From assembly GCF_001940235.1 (NCBI RefSeq), contig NZ_MJIE01000001.1, positions 744,001 through 808,000 on the forward strand: a DNA stretch of 64,000 bases. Direction: 5' to 3'. The translations under genes and the position numbers were made by a program. Positions 49,352-62,200 of this stretch are shown here, piece by piece (within the stretch, counting starts at the first letter, position 1; every line of letters begins with the position of its first letter). Below the pieces are notes generated by a model. It made no database searches. It was not told where the DNA came from and saw nothing but the letters and a program-made list of their open reading frames with translations. Origin of the DNA: Hornefia porci (GTDB lineage: Bacteria; Bacillota; Clostridia; Peptostreptococcales; Anaerovoracaceae).

Positions 49352-49567
49352 AAACTAAGGCCCTCCATGATTTTGATGGGTAATCAAAGTTTTTTAGGGT
49401 CTCTGTTCATTCGGGTCTAACAGTGGGCTCCTTCCGTGGGGTCTGACAATGGGGGCAGTGCGTAGGGGCAAAAGAACTCAAAATGATTAGAGGAGGCCGT
49501 GATTGCCTCCTCTATGCTTCTTCATTTATCATATAACTGCAACGATTTTAAAATGAAAGGAGCATAC

Positions 49568-49983
49568 ATGAATGATATCATAAGATTTCTTGAATTAGAA
49601 GACCCTGCAATAACAATCGAGGACATCTCCACAGAGGGACGTGTCAAAACGGTTACGTTGTCGACACCACCGGAGATCAGATTCTGTCCCCGGTGCAGCT
49701 TTCGAATGCATTCCAGAGGGATCAGGATCCGAAGGGTCAATCATCCGATATTGCAGGACACGTATCAGTTAGTCCTTTTACTGAAGCAGCGGCGCTGGCG
49801 CTGTACGAACGGGCAATGTCGATATGAAGAAAATGAATCTTTTAATTTCATAAGTAAACACCGTCGGAACACAAACGCAGCCGACTTTCTCATCGTCAAT
49901 GAATTCCGGGATCTGACTAAGTCTGCCGCAGATATCGCAAGGAAGTTCAACACTTCTGACACATACGCCATCAACGTATTTGA
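49568..49983 (+). pseudogene. ISL3 transposase of the outer copy, N-terminal part
   Basis: Starts MNDIIRFLELEDPAITIEDI with the zinc-finger CPRCSFRMHSRG, and CTNGQC later. Cut after SDTYAINVF by the inner element at 49984. The remainder of the gene continues at 52248. A fusion into the IS end adds GNQSFLGSLFIRV, as in the adhesin at 9467. Confidence 0.9.
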
Positions 49984-50173
49984 GGGTAATCAAAGTTTTT
50001 TAGGGTCTCTGTTCATTCGGGTCTAACAGTGGGCTCCTTCCGTGGGGTCTGACAATGGGGGCAGTGCGTAGGGGCAAAAGAACTCAAAATGATTAGAGGA
50101 GGCCGTGATTGCCTCCTCTATGCTTCTTCATTTATCATATAACTGCAACGATTTTAAAATGAAAGGAGCATAC

Positions 50174-51826
50174 ATGAATGATATCATAAGATTTCTTGAA
50201 TTAGAAGACCCTGCAATAACAATCGAGGACATCTCCACAGAGGGACGTGTCAAAACGGTTACGTTGTCGACACCACCGGAGATCAGATTCTGTCCCCGGT
50301 GCAGCTTTCGAATGCATTCCAGAGGGATCAGGATCCGAAGGGTCAATCATCCGATATTGCAGGACACGTATCAGTTAGTCCTTTTACTGAAGCAGCGGCG
50401 CTGGCGCTGTACGAACGGGCAATGTCGATATGAAGAAAATGAATCTTTTAATTTCATAAGTAAACACCGTCGGAACACAAACGCAGCCGACTTTCTCATC
50501 GTCAATGAATTCCGGGATCTGACTAAGTCTGCCGCAGATATCGCAAGGAAGTTCAACACTTCTGACACATACGCCATCAACGTATTTGACCGGTATGTCA
50601 ACATGAAGAGGATTGCCCTGACGGATGCGATCAGCATCGACGAAGTTCATCTCGACATCGATCAGATATGTCAATATGCGCTGGTCGTTCAGGATTTTCA
50701 TACAGGAGAAGTGATTGATCTGCTCGAAAGCCGCAGGCAGAATGTGACTGAACCATACTTCGCATCCATTCCAAAGGAAGAACGTTTTGCCGTTCAATAT
50801 CTCATCACGGACATGAACAATGAATATCTTCGCTATGTTGAGAGATACTTTCCGAACGCAGTATCTGTCGTAGATTCTTTCCATGTGATCCAGTGGATCG
50901 TCAAAGAACTTGCGGATTTCATACGCGATCTGCAGAATACGATCAGAGAGCGTGACGAAATACGGCAGAAAAAACTGTCGGAAAAGGCCGGACACCAGGT
51001 AAGGCTTCCAATGTCCGATGAACTGTATCTGCTGAAGCACTACCGTTTCCTTTTACTTTCCAATGCAGATTCCATCACATATCACGAGGAACCACACATG
51101 GACCGGCACTTCAGATGCCTGATGAGAACCTCCGATTACAAGGAACGCTTTTTTCTCATTGATCCCGCGTTGAAAGAACTCCATGATCTGAAAGAGCGTT
51201 ATGTGCGATTCAACACAGTAAATGCCGGCAAGCCTCAAAAGGCGGCAATCGAATTGAATCAACTGATCAATGACTACGCCCATTGCGATCACGACATCTT
51301 TATCCGTTTTTCCAGACTCCTGAAACGACACAGGGAACCTATCATCAACTCATTCGTTCTGATGGAACGGCTTGATAAAAACGGGGGCGCTATCATTTCG
51401 AGATTGTCCAACGGTCCTATCGAATCCACGAACAGAAAGGCCAAAGATCTGAAACGGATGGGGCGGGGTTTCCGTAATTTCAACCATTTTCGGAATCGGT
51501 TCCTCTTTGCTTCAAGAAACGATCCCCAATTAAACGGACGCGAGCCTGTCGGACAAGACCGGCCTCGTTCTTTAAGATACCGGAACACAGTTCCTAAGAG
51601 TAAACAGCGCGTCCTGAACGCTGAGCTCGAGTCGATTCTCGAAATGTACGACTGCTCAAAGGACGAGCTTCTTTCCCTTCGGCACTGGGTGGCTGAAGGC
51701 AACAGTCCTTTTAACAACCCGGATAGGATCCTCAATGAAGCGGGGCTTCCATGTGACTTCATTGCTGCCAGCAGAATACTGGACGAAGCCTTTCTTGACA
51801 TCAATAAGGGAGGTGATTTGAGATGA
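50174..51826 (+). CDS. ISL3-family transposase, intact
   Basis: Start at ATG 50174 behind AAAGGAGCATAC (550 residues). The N-terminal zinc ribbon spans about 40-85 (CPRCSFRMHSRG, CTNGQCRYEE), followed by a helix-turn-helix (KSAADIARKFNTSDTYAINV). The DDE_Tnp_ISL3 core has D in ISIDEVHLDIDQ, D in NAVSVVDSFHVIQWIVK and E in SNGPIESTNRKAKDLKR. It overlaps the small ORF behind it by four bases. Confidence 0.93.
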   Translation: MNDIIRFLELEDPAITIEDISTEGRVKTVTLSTPPEIRFCPRCSFRMHSRGIRIRRVNHPILQDTYQLVLLLKQRRWRCTNGQCRYEENESFNFISKHRRNTNAADFLIVNEFRDLTKSAADIARKFNTSDTYAINVFDRYVNMKRIALTDAISIDEVHLDIDQICQYALVVQDFHTGEVIDLLESRRQNVTEPYFASIPKEERFAVQYLITDMNNEYLRYVERYFPNAVSVVDSFHVIQWIVKELADFIRDLQNTIRERDEIRQKKLSEKAGHQVRLPMSDELYLLKHYRFLLLSNADSITYHEEPHMDRHFRCLMRTSDYKERFFLIDPALKELHDLKERYVRFNTVNAGKPQKAAIELNQLINDYAHCDHDIFIRFSRLLKRHREPIINSFVLMERLDKNGGAIISRLSNGPIESTNRKAKDLKRMGRGFRNFNHFRNRFLFASRNDPQLNGREPVGQDRPRSLRYRNTVPKSKQRVLNAELESILEMYDCSKDELLSLRHWVAEGNSPFNNPDRILNEAGLPCDFIAASRILDEAFLDINKGGDLR

Positions 51827-52014
51827 CCACCTATCAAGAACTGCATCAACATATCCTCGATCTTGAAACGGATCTCGATTTTCAAACAACGGAATTAAAC
51901 TGCCTGTACGGATTCCTGTCCTGGATGAATCTATGGGATGAATTCATCTATTTCAGAAACCATGCTCATTCTGAACAAAATGAAGACGAACCCTTCCCAC
52001 GTCTGGTACTTTAA
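51823..52014 (+). CDS. Small accessory ORF of the ISL3 element
   Basis: The 63-residue acidic protein (MTTYQELHQHILDLETDLDF, ending PFPRLVL) starts inside the transposase stop (ATGA) behind GGGAGGTGATTTG. It recurs unchanged in the outer copy. Function unknown; coupling suggests a role in transposition or its control (inference). The 230 bp after it are non-coding IS end with a hairpin (AAGCGGAG/CTCCGCTT). Confidence 0.7.
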   Translation: MTTYQELHQHILDLETDLDFQTTELNCLYGFLSWMNLWDEFIYFRNHAHSEQNEDEPFPRLVL

Positions 52015-52247
52015 CCTAAACTCTCATTAAGAAAACTGACATCAGAATCGTTGCAATTCAAAGCGGAGATCACTTATCGATCCTCCGCTTGATTTTCCGT
52101 TCAGTTCTTGTTTGTTCAGACCCCATAGTTCGCCCCTAATGAACGACCCCACAGACTGTCCCTAACGACAGACCATAACGAATGACATCTGACCCTAATG
52201 CTTTCCCCCAAAAAACTTTGACAAACCCTAAAAAACTTTGATTACCC

Positions 52248-53492
52248 GTATTTGACCGGTATGTCAACATGAAGAGGATTGCCCTGACGGATGCGATCAG
52301 CATCGACGAAGTTCATCTCGACATCGATCAGATATGTCAATATGCGCTGGTCGTTCAGGATTTTCATACAGGAGAAGTGATTGATCTGCTCGAAAGCCGC
52401 AGGCAGAATGTGACTGAACCATACTTCGCATCCATTCCAAAGGAAGAACGTTTTGCCGTTCAATATCTCATCACGGACATGAACAATGAATATCTTCGCT
52501 ATGTTGAGAGATACTTTCCGAACGCAGTATCTGTCGTAGATTCTTTCCATGTGATCCAGTGGATCGTCAAAGAACTTGCGGATTTCATACGCGATCTGCA
52601 GAATACGATCAGAGAGCGTGACGAAATACGGCAGAAAAAACTGTCGGAAAAGGCCGGACACCAGGTAAGGCTTCCAATGTCCGATGAACTGTATCTGCTG
52701 AAGCACTACCGTTTCCTTTTACTTTCCAATGCAGATTCCATCACATATCACGAGGAACCACACATGGACCGGCACTTCAGATGCCTGATGAGAACCTCCG
52801 ATTACAAGGAACGCTTTTTTCTCATTGATCCCGCGTTGAAAGAACTCCATGATCTGAAAGAGCGTTATGTGCGATTCAACACAGTAAATGCCGGCAAGCC
52901 TCAAAAGGCGGCAATCGAATTGAATCAACTGATCAATGACTACGCCCATTGCGATCACGACATCTTTATCCGTTTTTCCAGACTCCTGAAACGACACAGG
53001 GAACCTATCATCAACTCATTCGTTCTGATGGAACGGCTTGATAAAAACGGGGGCGCTATCATTTCGAGATTGTCCAACGGTCCTATCGAATCCACGAACA
53101 GAAAGGCCAAAGATCTGAAACGGATGGGGCGGGGTTTCCGTAATTTCAACCATTTTCGGAATCGGTTCCTCTTTGCTTCAAGAAACGATCCCCAATTAAA
53201 CGGACGCGAGCCTGTCGGACAAGACCGGCCTCGTTCTTTAAGATACCGGAACACAGTTCCTAAGAGTAAACAGCGCGTCCTGAACGCTGAGCTCGAGTCG
53301 ATTCTCGAAATGTACGACTGCTCAAAGGACGAGCTTCTTTCCCTTCGGCACTGGGTGGCTGAAGGCAACAGTCCTTTTAACAACCCGGATAGGATCCTCA
53401 ATGAAGCGGGGCTTCCATGTGACTTCATTGCTGCCAGCAGAATACTGGACGAAGCCTTTCTTGACATCAATAAGGGAGGTGATTTGAGATGA
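52248..53492 (+). pseudogene. ISL3 transposase of the outer copy, C-terminal part
   Basis: Picks up at the target duplication (GTATTTGA, VFDRYVNMKRIALTDAIS) and runs to the normal stop. The whole DDE core is present but the zinc ribbon is on the other side of the inner element. A start at ATG 52269 could make a 407-residue fragment; activity is unlikely. Confidence 0.9.
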
Positions 53493-53680
53493 CCACCTAT
53501 CAAGAACTGCATCAACATATCCTCGATCTTGAAACGGATCTCGATTTTCAAACAACGGAATTAAACTGCCTGTACGGATTCCTGTCCTGGATGAATCTAT
53601 GGGATGAATTCATCTATTTCAGAAACCATGCTCATTCTGAACAAAATGAAGACGAACCCTTCCCACGTCTGGTACTTTAA
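53489..53680 (+). CDS. Small accessory ORF of the outer ISL3 copy
   Basis: Identical to the 63-residue ORF at 51823. It keeps its ribosome site and coupling to the transposase C-terminal fragment. Confidence 0.65.
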   Translation: MTTYQELHQHILDLETDLDFQTTELNCLYGFLSWMNLWDEFIYFRNHAHSEQNEDEPFPRLVL

Positions 53681-56927: not shown

Positions 56928-57323
56928 TTTGATTGTAACGCAATACCCCCCGTTAGTCAATCCTAACCATTATGTCCCAGGACTCCGACATTTTGCCCCC
57001 TACTCTGACACTTTGCCTCATTTCAATTGCCAGATATTTCTTCAAAAACAGTGAAAATCCACTCCGGATTTACCATCCAGAGTGGGCCCTGAAACGCTGA
57101 AACCCTTTGGTATCAAGGGCTTCAACTAAAAACGACACATTGTATCAATGCGTCGTCTTAATATGGTGGAGATAAGGGGGACGCGCTTCGTCATCTATAA
57201 CCGTTGAATTTACTGAAATACGTTAAAAAGCATGGTAAAAGTGTGGCATAGTTTTTTATGTATGCTGTGTCACCTGTTCACTCCGCCTTTAGCCAATGTT
57301 TTTTGGCATGTCTTAAACTTTAT
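56928..57323. other. Gene-free stretch with an insertion-sequence-like scar
   Basis: I see no gene. ACTCCGACATTTTGCCCCC and CTCTGACACTTTGCCTC (about 56984-57018) are near-repeats like the multiple end repeats of IS21-type elements. ATCCACTCCGGATTTACCATCCAGAGTGG is a short imperfect hairpin. The rest shows nothing. Confidence 0.35.
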
Positions 57324-58749: not shown

Positions 58750-59280
58750 CTATGCGTTATTTTTTTTGATCAAGATCACGCCTCTATAAACTTTATTTCC
58801 ACACTTTCTTTTGATCTCCTGTGTGGCCGTCACCGCGCTGATCTTCCCGGAGCTGATCCGCCTTATGCGTGCTCCGTCCCATACGAGGCACACCGTGTGG
58901 ATCGGATCGCCTTCCTCAAAGATCACAAGCCATCCTTTCCGCAGCCAGTCCCCCAGCTGCTCCGCGGTCGTTGTCCGACGGAATTTCACGATTTCCGGCC
59001 CGATCACTTTTTTCAGCGCTCTGGCAATCTCCACGATCGGAAATTTGCTTTTGCACTTCAAGTTTTTCTTCGCGTACTTTAAGCACTTCCCCATCGTCCA
59101 TTTTTCCCCGCACCAGCGGAGCGCGATATACATGCCGACCAGCGAGCATCCGTGATCGCGGATAAAGGCTGTCTTAAATCGCTGCTGTTTCGGAATTGGA
59201 ATCCGCCGGCCGTTTCCGCAGATGATTTCACATGGATATTTGTAGTTATCCGTCTTTCTTATCTTTCCAATACTTGTCAT
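58750..59280 (-). CDS. C39-like cysteine peptidase-fold protein of the prophage
   Basis: In this 176-residue protein, DHGCSLVGMYIALRW carries a Cys in the position of C39-like peptidases, and DPIHTVCLVWDGARI the matching His. Between them VIGPEIVKFRRTTTAEQLGD and WLRKGWLVIFEEGD fit the same fold. It starts four bases inside the specificity-subunit stop. Probably a phage-borne (moron) gene; role unknown. Confidence 0.55.
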   Translation of the reverse strand: MTSIGKIRKTDNYKYPCEIICGNGRRIPIPKQQRFKTAFIRDHGCSLVGMYIALRWCGEKWTMGKCLKYAKKNLKCKSKFPIVEIARALKKVIGPEIVKFRRTTTAEQLGDWLRKGWLVIFEEGDPIHTVCLVWDGARIRRISSGKISAVTATQEIKRKCGNKVYRGVILIKKNNA

Positions 59281-59723
59281 TTTCTTTGCTCCACAAAAAG
59301 ATTTTTCATGTAAAAGGATTTAATTGCTTTCAGCTTCTCAATCTCTCTTTCCTCCGCCTCGATCGCTTCTTGTACTTTTCTCTGCATTTCGACGATTTTG
59401 CGCTGCTCTTCGACGCTTTCGTGATACTCGATTTCAAAATTGTTTAACGTGTCTATCTGTAAATTTATCGTGGTCAGATACTTGTGCACGAATTTTGGCA
59501 GCCCTCTTTCTATGACCAAAAATAAGTATTCCGGAAGAATTTCTTTTTTTGATGTGATCACTGCGTATCGTGTACTTACTTCTCCCTCAGAAGAATGAAA
59601 GCTGGCCGCTCCTTTGGTTCCCGACAATTCGATCAGCGTCTCCCTTCCGGGGTAGCGCTTCCCTTTCTTGGCTCTCTCTATCGTTGCCACCTGCAGCAGT
59701 GTTGCTTCTTTTATTCTTTTCAT
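59277..59723 (-). CDS. Half-size type I specificity subunit (HsdS-like)
   Basis: The 148-residue protein has one target-recognition-like domain (about 1-100: GKRYPGRETLIELSGTKGAA, EYLFLVIERGLPKFVHKYL) and one conserved helical arm (about 105-148: EEQRKIVEMQRKVQEAIEAE). Full HsdS has two of each (about 400 residues). A half subunit could dimerise. It starts 137 bp inside the methyltransferase frame behind AAGGAG. With no HsdR in the window, it likely guides methylation only. Confidence 0.72.
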   Translation of the reverse strand: MKRIKEATLLQVATIERAKKGKRYPGRETLIELSGTKGAASFHSSEGEVSTRYAVITSKKEILPEYLFLVIERGLPKFVHKYLTTINLQIDTLNNFEIEYHESVEEQRKIVEMQRKVQEAIEAEEREIEKLKAIKSFYMKNLFVEQRK

Positions 59724-60938
59724 TTATGTACTCCTTGTACAACGCATTTGCCTTATCGACAATCTCCTGTGCCTCCGGCGTCGTTCCAACTAACTGCGCG
59801 GCCATCGCGATCAATTCCCTCTCGGTTTTGTCGATCTCCATGTTGATCGCCTTCAGCTCTGCCAGCGTCTCCAGGAGATCGGGCACGGGCTCCGGCTCAA
59901 ATGTGTCCACGTAGCGCGGAATGTTCAGATTGTATCCATTTCCCCGGATTTCCTCCAGTGTCGTCACATGCGACAGTTTGTCGATATCTCTCCGGATGCT
60001 GACCGCACTGCATACGCGGTTGATCTGCTCCAGCGTCATGATGTTCACCCTGCCTTCTTTGACGTATTCTTTCGATGCGTCAACCATCAGGATGTCATCG
60101 CGCTTCCTGCCTTTCTTCAGGATCATCAGCAACACTGGAATGCCCGTGTTCATGAACAAATTGTCCGGAAGTCCGATGATCGCATCAATTAAGTTTGCGT
60201 CAATCAGATTTTTTCGTATCGCTTCTTCCTTCTTTCCTCTGAAAAGTACTCCGTGTGGAAGAATTTCCACCAGCGTTCCGCCATCGTCAAGTCTCGACAG
60301 CGCATCTTGCACGAAAAGAAAGTCGCTGAATCCAGACGGCGTGAGCCCATAAGAAAACCGCGGATCATCCGCTACCTTGTCTACGTCTTGAAATTTCAGT
60401 GAGTATGGCGGGTTGCTCACGATCCGCTTCCACTTACGCGGTGCGCCCTTCGGCTTCAGCACCGGCCGGGTAAATTCTCCGCATGACTGCATCTCGTAAA
60501 CTTTTTCATCCCCCCCCCGGTCAGCACATCCCGAAGCGCCACTTCGCCGCGATATCCTCGGATCCCAAAATTTAAAAGCAGCACCGGAAGCGCCCTCGTG
60601 CTGACCTCTTCGGCTCTGTGGAATCCCCCTGTGCTGCATGCAATTGAAAGCGCGCCTGTTCCGGCGCAGACATCCAACACGTCTTTGCCGTCTCCGGACA
60701 GCCGGCGCACCAACTCACATACACAATCGGGAGTGTAATCCTGCTTCAGTTTCCCGCGATCGCCATGCTCCGCCTGGAAGTAGTCCCGCATAACATCTTT
60801 TGAAAGATCAAGGTCCCGTGTTAAAAGTTCTTCGTAAAAGTCGATCACGTTTTCTCCGGTCAGAATTTCCATCAACTTCTCCGGCATTTCATACGACTCT
60901 TTTATCCCGATAAGATCATTAAAATCCTCATTGGTCAT
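59587..60938 (-). pseudogene. Type I-like N6-adenine DNA methyltransferase, out of frame at a G9 tract (phase variable?)
   Basis: ATG 60938 opens MTNEDFNDLIGIKESYEMPE. Motif I is DVLDVCAGTGALSIA. The frame meets a run of nine G (60510-60518) and ends soon after, at 60456. In the next frame the gene continues with DEKVYEMQSCGEF, the catalytic NPPYS motif in VSNPPYSLKFQDV and SYGLTPSGFSDFLFVQDA, to 59587. With 7 or 10 G the two parts form one frame of about 450 codons. The HsdM family methylates adenine with HsdS as guide. It sits in the phage lysis region, directly behind the amidase, so it is phage cargo. Confidence 0.85.
60510..60518 (-). repeat. Homopolymer of nine G in the methyltransferase gene
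   Basis: C9 on the given strand, G9 on the coding strand, preceded by CC (coding strand) and followed by ATGAAAAAG. Mononucleotide tracts of this length slip in replication, and the reading frame breaks exactly here. Confidence 0.9.
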
Positions 60939-61499: not shown

Positions 61500-61775
61500 T
61501 CACTTCGCCTCCTCTTCTGTCTCTTCTTCCGGGACATCCTCATCTTCGCCTTCTGCTTCTTCTGTGGTCAGCTCGCTGGGGCCCGTCGCTTCCGGAAGTC
61601 CCGCCACAGAGGTCAGCAGTGAAAGAAGTCCTGCCAGCACCGCTGCGGAGACCACCATCTTCCAATCCACGGAGGACAGCACCGCCGCACTTCCGATCGT
61701 GGCGATTGCCGTCTGCGCCATCGTCTTCACGGCCCTTACTCCGGCCGCCTTCATCCAAATTCTGTTAATCATCAT
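61500..61775 (-). CDS. r1t-type phage holin
   Basis: The 91-residue protein resembles lactococcal phage r1t holin: RIWMKAAGVRAVKTMAQTAI, ATIGSAAVLSSVDWKMVVSA, AVLAGLLSLLTSVAGLPE. Two membrane helices are followed by a very acidic tail (EEAEGEDEDVPEEETEEEAK). ATG 61775 or 61772 lies behind AAAGGAGGCAGG. It forms pores for endolysin release. It overlaps the upstream holin gene by four bases. Confidence 0.88.
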   Translation of the reverse strand: MMINRIWMKAAGVRAVKTMAQTAIATIGSAAVLSSVDWKMVVSAAVLAGLLSLLTSVAGLPEATGPSELTTEEAEGEDEDVPEEETEEEAK

Positions 61776-62200
61776 CCTGCCTCCTTTTTTGATTCCTGGT
61801 TTGTGAGCATCTCAATTCCGCGCTGGATCACTTTCGGGATCGGGATCCCCATAAGTCCCGCGTTTTCGATGATGCTTAGCGTTTCATTGGTTATAAATGC
61901 GATCACTGTCGCGTCCCGTATAAAGTGCGTGTGTGCTTCAAAGTCCAGCCGACAGGCCACGATCACGATCATCATGATCACGCCTTTTCGGCACAAGCCT
62001 TTAAAACCCGCCCTCGACTCCAGCTTCCCGGTCCGCGATTTTTTTGACTTATGAAAAACACCGGCCACGATCAGACCGGTGATATAATCGATTGCCATGA
62101 AAATCACGAGAGTAGTCATGGAGTCACTCCAGCCGCCGAAAAATTCAGCGACTATCCCGCCTGCAATTCCGCAGCAGACGGCAAATGTTTTATCTCCCAT
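61772..62200 (-). CDS. Phage holin, phage_holin_4 family
   Basis: The 142-residue protein has a membrane N-terminal half: CGIAGGIVAEFFGGWSDSMT, TLVIFMAIDYITGLIVAGVF. The family motif KSRTGKLESRAGFKGLCRKG is followed by helices and the amphipathic tail NETLSIIENAGLMGIPIPKV. ATG follows AGGAAGAC. Together with the r1t-type holin it makes a two-holin lysis set. Confidence 0.88.
   Translation of the reverse strand: MGDKTFAVCCGIAGGIVAEFFGGWSDSMTTLVIFMAIDYITGLIVAGVFHKSKKSRTGKLESRAGFKGLCRKGVIMMIVIVACRLDFEAHTHFIRDATVIAFITNETLSIIENAGLMGIPIPKVIQRGIEMLTNQESKKEAG

What the first reader, a model, noticed from the sequence alone, without database searches (positions are those of the whole stretch)
59587..60938. 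Phage-borne DNA methyltransferase that looks switched by a G9 tract
The HsdM frame breaks exactly at nine G; 7 or 10 G would restore a frame of about 450 codons holding motif I (DVCAGTGAL) and NPPYS. In the present state the protein stops before the catalytic motif. Its partner is a half-size HsdS, and no HsdR is visible. The genes sit behind the endolysin, so a prophage may give its host or its own DNA an ON/OFF methylation pattern. A sequencing error in the homopolymer is the main alternative.
Basis: partly seen in the sequence, partly recalled or inferred. Interest (0 to 1): 0.85.

Follow-up and report, generated by a model that had tools for sequence, protein, structure and literature searches.

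The report
Prophage DNA methylase broken at G9
A virus dormant in a bacterial genome carries a two-part DNA-marking enzyme whose main gene changes reading frame at a run of nine G's; such runs can act as on/off switches, but a switch, a plain breakage and a sequencing slip cannot yet be told apart.

Summary
On the minus strand, an N6-adenine methyltransferase gene (60938..59587) changes frame inside nine G (60510-60518). Motif I lies before the run and NPPY after it, so the first frame ends at codon 160. It is the only G>=9 run in the 2.81-Mb genome.

The gene and a 148-aa single-domain specificity protein form a recurring phage gene pair without HsdR, here in a ~32-kb prophage in a tRNA-Ala gene. 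I compared 31 loci with this pair. 28 have an open M frame; the three broken ones carry three different lesions (this G9, a 2-nt and a 19-nt deletion). None of the other 30 has a G/C run of six or more. The nearest relative (85% DNA identity) is intact and lacks the run. The tract is therefore private to this prophage among the loci seen, not a conserved switch.

Best reading: an R-less, M.AhdI-like M+S adenine methyltransferase that a slippage-prone run has put OFF, and may switch. Plain loss, a consensus error in the homopolymer, a split enzyme and slippage in expression stay open: no second strain and no reads could be examined. Tract-switched methyltransferases are known in bacteria; none carried by a phage was listed in my searches.

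The parts
60456..60938 (-). First frame of the methyltransferase gene (M), 160 aa, with motif I
   Evidence: PHROG 'DNA methyltransferase' E 5e-30; no Pfam match
60648..60674 (-). Motif I, DVCAGTGAL
   Evidence: sequence; motif name recalled
60510..60518 (-). Run of nine G, place of the frame break
59587..60639 (-). Second frame of M; after the run it holds NPPYS and the N6_Mtase core
   Evidence: Pfam N6_Mtase E 3.8e-50
60403..60414 (-). Catalytic motif NPPY
   Evidence: sequence
59277..59723 (-). S: 148-aa single-domain specificity protein
   Evidence: Methylase_S E 4.3e-07; model pLDDT 88.4; best folds are type I S subunits
59587..59723 (-). 137-nt overlap of M and S; only the S frame is constrained
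   Evidence: dN/dS 0.14 in the S frame, 1.05 in the M frame, against L005
60935..61543 (-). N-acetylmuramoyl-L-alanine amidase (endolysin) just upstream of M
   Evidence: Amidase_3 E 3.5e-21
61772..62200 (-). Holin
   Evidence: Phage_holin_4_1 E 1.3e-35
57161..57181 (.). Left copy of a 21-bp direct repeat, probable attL; the right copy is outside the window at 89131-89151 in window numbering, in the end of a tRNA-Ala gene and next to an integrase

Best explanation
A temperate phage carries an R-less, two-subunit N6-adenine methyltransferase: a short M (449 aa in the nearest intact relative) and a single-domain S. S probably pairs with itself through its long C-terminal helix, so that M2S2 would read a two-part palindromic site and mark phage and host DNA. 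In this prophage a private run of nine G inside M, about 32 codons before NPPY and at a place predicted to be a turn between two strands, has shifted the frame, so the copy as assembled should make no active M. Runs of this length change length by polymerase slippage, so the gene most likely flips on and off at slippage rate and is now OFF. Shown: frame break and its place, gene pair, prophage, no R in it, uniqueness of the run in this genome. Inferred: subunit number, type of target, activity, reversible switching.
For: Break at the run. Only G>=9 run of the genome, 0.06-0.08 expected from the tail. No further stop in the second frame from the run to the gene end. Against L005 dN/dS is 0.14 before and 0.19 after the run, so both halves were long under selection. 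The pair is intact in 28 of 31 loci. Precedents: hsdM switching by repeats in H. influenzae and repeats in 2% of hsdM genes (PMC7394358, passages); gonococcal NgoAV hsdS with 6 to 9 G in 92 strains and a half-size S (PMC9577141, passages).
Against: 0 of 30 other loci have the run. No variation in tract length has been seen: one genome, no reads. A shuffle of the window does not find the run unusual and G9 occurs in 66 of 119 family genomes. M is also lost elsewhere by ordinary deletions, which fits plain loss.
Confidence: 0.4

Rival explanations
1. Plain recent loss of function: slippage at a chance G run broke M once, and the lysogen carries a dead gene with no selected switching.
For: Run private to this prophage. 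Two other M genes in the family are broken by non-repeat deletions, 2 nt in phage PY3 and 19 nt in L055, so loss of M is tolerated.
Against: The lesion is in the longest G run of the genome rather than anywhere else in the gene, and such a run can revert easily (general knowledge).
Confidence: 0.25
2. Consensus error: the assembled length of the homopolymer is wrong and the frame is open in the cell.
For: One assembly only; the IMG/VR copy is identical and probably the same isolate. Long homopolymers are the usual place of such errors (general knowledge). Both halves look constrained.
Against: No sign of poor quality in the stretches looked at: the prophage beyond the window has long open frames for portal, tape measure and integrase, and 4 of the 10 other G runs of >=7 lie inside open frames of 211-1001 aa. 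Neither tests this tract. The sequencing method is unknown to me.
Confidence: 0.22
3. Slippage in expression: RNA polymerase or the ribosome slips on the run, so that some full-length M is made from the nine-G gene.
For: The second frame is reached by one step back at a run of one base, where slippage is possible (general knowledge).
Against: No RNA structure beyond shuffles after the run: z -0.04, 1.21 and 0.46 for three stretches. Relatives make M from one plain frame.
Confidence: 0.07
4. Split enzyme: the motif I half and the NPPY half are made as two proteins that work together.
For: In two distant phage relatives M is annotated as two genes divided in the same interval, between motif I and NPPY: Lactococcus phage D4044 (169 and 335 aa) and Staphylococcus phage SpP (218 and 260 aa).
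Against: The nearest relative and 28 of 31 loci with the pair have one frame. In the window the division is a G run, and I saw by eye no good ribosome-binding site before the first in-frame ATG after it. Whether the two distant cases are working splits or frame breaks was not tested.
Confidence: 0.06

Closest known systems
Phase-variable type I hsdM with simple sequence repeats (H. influenzae; PMC7394358, passages)
   Same: Repeat inside the M coding frame; a change of length puts the gene ON or OFF
   Different: Here phage-borne, without R, mononucleotide run, one state seen; no switching shown
NgoAV of Neisseria gonorrhoeae (PMC9577141, passages)
   Same: Poly-G tract (6-9 G), half-size S that works in an M+S enzyme
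   Different: There the tract is in hsdS and changes specificity, with R present, on the chromosome; here it is in M
M.AhdI (PMC2878638, abstract and passages)
   Same: M plus an S of about half size with one recognition domain; M2S2, palindromic split site
   Different: S is 25 kDa and M 60 kDa there; here S is 148 aa and M about 450 aa; stoichiometry and site untested
Phage M+S pairs such as ORF36/ORF35 of Streptococcus phage phiZJ20091101-4 (KX077895)
   Same: Same two genes side by side, no R annotated nearby
   Different: Open M frame, no run; sits near replication genes instead of the endolysin
PamA, prophage adenine methyltransferase of S. aureus (PMC12435837, abstract)
   Same: Methyltransferase of a prophage that acts on host gene expression
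   Different: No repeat switch mentioned in the abstract; homology to M not tested
Esub1 (PDB 8vsq, 8vsr, the latter with Prx)
   Same: Stand-alone chain of 184-196 residues with a fold like the S model, TM 0.64-0.70 by query length, E 0.005-0.011
   Different: No match to the S profile up to E 10; that it is a phage methylase subunit and Prx is paratox is recalled only, no paper found

Membership tests
Repeat-switched (phase-variable) methyltransferase | Simple repeat inside the coding frame whose length sets the frame | tested here: met
   Nine G at the frame break
Repeat-switched (phase-variable) methyltransferase | More than one tract length, with open and closed states, among strains or cells | not testable with these tools
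   One genome per species, no reads; the second copy is probably the same isolate
Repeat-switched (phase-variable) methyltransferase | Tract kept in relatives of the gene | tested here: not met
   0 of 30 other loci with the pair
Type I restriction-modification system | HsdR subunit with M and S | tested here: not met
   No HSDR_N match inside the prophage; three elsewhere in the genome
Type I HsdM equivalog (TIGR00497) | Curated score cut-off 242.75 bits | tested here: not met
   131.9 bits for the second frame, 135.2 for the intact relative
N6-adenine DNA methyltransferase (Pfam N6_Mtase) | Family score, motif I and NPPY | tested here: met
   E 3.8e-50; both motifs present, in different frames
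M.AhdI-like M2S2 methyltransferase | Single-domain S next to M | tested here: met
M.AhdI-like M2S2 methyltransferase | M2S2 complex that methylates a symmetric split site | not testable with these tools
   Needs protein or methylome
Prophage-borne methyltransferase without its own endonuclease | Lies between att repeats with phage genes and without R | tested here: met
   not every prophage gene was identified

The most novel reading that the evidence does not exclude
A temperate phage has evolved its own contingency switch: slippage at G9 flips a phage-borne adenine methyltransferase, so that some lysogens, and the particles they release, carry the mark and others do not. The population would hedge between marked phage DNA and an unaltered host methylome.
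Probability: 0.28. Interest if true: 0.65.

Novelty: new member of a known kind. Interest (0 to 1): 0.42.

Why it matters
If the run really switches, a prophage would impose an ON/OFF methylation pattern on a lysogen population. That would join two known themes: tract-switched methyltransferases, and prophage methylases that alter host expression (PamA, PMC12435837, abstract seen). My searches for a phage-borne, tract-switched methyltransferase (listings only) listed none that I recognised as such, but most papers are outside that library. Apart from switching, the comparison describes a recurring phage pair, a short M plus a 142-161-aa single-domain S, whose target could be read from the methylome of an intact relative.

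Tried and rejected
Conserved switch: rejected among the loci seen, 0 of 30 others have the run.

Streptococcus phage PY3 as a second switched case: its M is annotated in two pieces, but the lesion is a 2-nt deletion outside any repeat against PY9. L055 has a 19-nt deletion against L057. Neither supports switching.

G019:C37 as a second break at the same place, because only the N-terminal part matched: the contig has no G or C run of six and no matching C-terminal half. Dropped.

Programmed frameshift with a stimulating structure: not supported.

Near-DNA search of phage records with the pair: no match. Host family: 122 of 349 genomes have N6-methylase matches. Many of the better ones listed are frames of about 500-600 or 850-930 aa; I did not examine them one by one.

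Phage records: one search matched 45 records and one search matched 7. I opened 16 places. In the 13 opened last, four (L151, L153, L156, L163) carry the short M and a 143-146-aa gene and were added to the count. Five (L152, L154, L155, L157, L158) have M frames of 529-579 aa; L159 and L162 have M in two frames; L160 and L161 are partial or unclear. These nine were left out of the count. L157 has a run of six G after M.

Odds: between the first and this filing I lowered the switch from 0.42 to 0.40, loss from 0.27 to 0.25, error from 0.24 to 0.22 and the novel case from 0.30 to 0.28, because brought up the split-enzyme rival.

Full report
OBSERVATION. On the minus strand an N6-adenine methyltransferase gene (M) starts at 60938. 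Its first frame runs 160 codons and holds motif I; its second frame, to 59587, holds NPPYS. Nine G at 60510-60518 lie between them. The nearest relative found, L005 (from a 7,347-base IMG/VR contig, 85% DNA identity over M and S), has one open M frame of 449 aa. Aligned to it, the two halves of the window gene stay in register up to both sides of the run; L005 has other bases there and no G run. The break is therefore at the run. Motif names are recalled.

CHANCE. Dinucleotide shuffling of the window does not find the run remarkable (37 of 100 shuffles reach the count of G8 matches). The genome's own tail does: 154 runs of >=6, 11 of >=7, 2 of >=8, 1 of >=9, with 0.06-0.08 expected for >=9. 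Of the ten other runs of >=7, at least four lie inside open frames of 211-1001 aa; the run of eight lies in no frame above 90 aa. Against rarity, 66 of 119 genomes drawn from the same family hold at least one G9.

THE GENE PAIR. Directly after M comes a 148-aa protein with a Methylase_S match. One search analysed 31 loci from scans of viral and genome contigs and three phage records. I set aside L039 and L040 (second copies of L005 and of the window's own contig) and L060 and L061 (22-26% identity, no S), leaving 27. From 13 further phage records (analysed) four more carry the same pair, making 31 loci, not made non-redundant and including the window's own copy (L004). 28 of 31 have an open M frame of 409-449 aa. 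The three broken ones are the window (G9), phage PY3 (L036, 2-nt deletion) and L055 (19-nt deletion). None of the other 30 has a G or C run of six or more between the M match and 600 bases after it. 28 of 31 show S by sequence directly downstream; in L036, L037 and L156 a 146-aa reading frame sits there (L037 aligned at 24% identity).

STRUCTURE. The S model (12-row alignment, pLDDT 88.4) is one domain with a long C-terminal helix; Foldseek's best matches are type I S subunits (3 matches with E <= 0.001). The M model of the intact relative L005 (pLDDT 76.8) resembles type I M subunits, best 3lkd, and puts the site of the run at a turn between strands 131-137 and 142-152. The NCBIfam HsdM equivalog cut-off is not reached, so I call the gene an N6 methylase of HsdM type.

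THE PROPHAGE. A 21-bp direct repeat at 57161 and at 89131 (window numbering) flanks the element. The right copy lies in the end of a tRNA-Ala gene next to an integrase; 200 shuffles of one stretch give at most 16 bp. Of ten proteins beyond the window scanned against PHROGs, six match integrase, ParB-like, replication initiation, portal, major tail and tape measure families, one has only weak matches and three have none. Holin, amidase, M, S and a 176-aa gene lie in one row, and L005 keeps amidase, M, S and the 176-aa gene in that order. No HSDR_N match lies inside; the genome has three elsewhere.

SELECTION. Against L005, dN/dS is 0.14 for M before the run, 0.19 after it outside the overlap with S, 0.09-0.14 for S, 0.06 for the amidase. 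In the 137-nt overlap only the S frame is constrained (0.14, against 1.05 for M). This shows long-term selection on both halves of M and cannot show what happened since the run arose. dS is higher in M and S (0.45-0.63; 0.13 in the overlap read in the M frame) than in the two neighbours (0.30-0.32).

MECHANISM. From the parts: M supplies catalysis and S recognition, S probably pairs with itself, and the complex marks adenines at a symmetric split site as M.AhdI does. As assembled the first frame lacks NPPY, so no marking is expected. The lesion is a slippage-prone run, so reversion should be more frequent than for an ordinary mutation; this is inference from tracts such as NgoAV (6-9 G in 92 strains). 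M and S are translationally coupled in EcoKI (PMC3510504, abstract); if that holds here, the OFF state would also lower S. Switching cannot be settled with one genome, no reads and no sister strain. I give 0.40 to a switch, 0.25 to plain loss, 0.22 to a consensus error, 0.07 to slippage in expression and 0.06 to a split enzyme. The last rests on two distant phages, D4044 and SpP, whose M is in two frames divided between motif I and NPPY.

KNOWN AND NEW. Repeat-switched hsdM is known (PMC7394358, passages), poly-G switching with a half-size S is known (PMC9577141, passages), poly-G switching of other methyltransferases is described in Mycoplasma agalactiae (PMC9465063, passages), and prophage methylases that act on host expression are known (PMC12435837, abstract). 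I recognised no phage-borne, tract-switched methyltransferase in the listings. I rate the case a new member of a known kind and leave the bolder reading, a phage-owned contingency switch, open.

Noticed in passing
window 59587-59723: M and S overlap by 137 nt here and in L005; only the S frame is constrained there, so the tail of M looks like read-through into S.
   Followed up: partly
window 59277-60938 against L005: dS of M and S (0.45-0.63) is about twice that of the amidase and 176-aa neighbours (0.30-0.32), which hints at faster divergence or exchange of the pair.
   Followed up: no
L162 2010-3526 and L159 1792-3181: Lactococcus phage D4044 and Staphylococcus phage SpP have M in two reading frames divided between motif I and NPPY; in SpP the S region is also in two frames, with a run of eight A before the second. 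Split enzymes or frame breaks were not told apart.
   Followed up: partly
L036; L055: Two further phage M genes are broken by ordinary deletions of 2 and 19 nt, so loss of M recurs in this family.
   Followed up: yes
window 58750-59280: The 176-aa gene after S has no match in Pfam or PHROGs at E 0.001; by eye it has Cys and His stretches like a cysteine peptidase (recalled, untested).
   Followed up: no
window 49499-53680: Two copies of one transposase gene side by side; the second lacks its start, and a 175-aa piece of the start precedes the first.
   Followed up: no
L008, L009, L011, L012 and others: Several host relatives of M lie in single open frames of 854-931 aa, perhaps M fused to another domain.
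   Followed up: no
S model of window 59277-59723: The S fold resembles Esub1 (PDB 8vsq, 8vsr), which was crystallised with Prx; a phage regulator of such enzymes is conceivable.
   Followed up: partly
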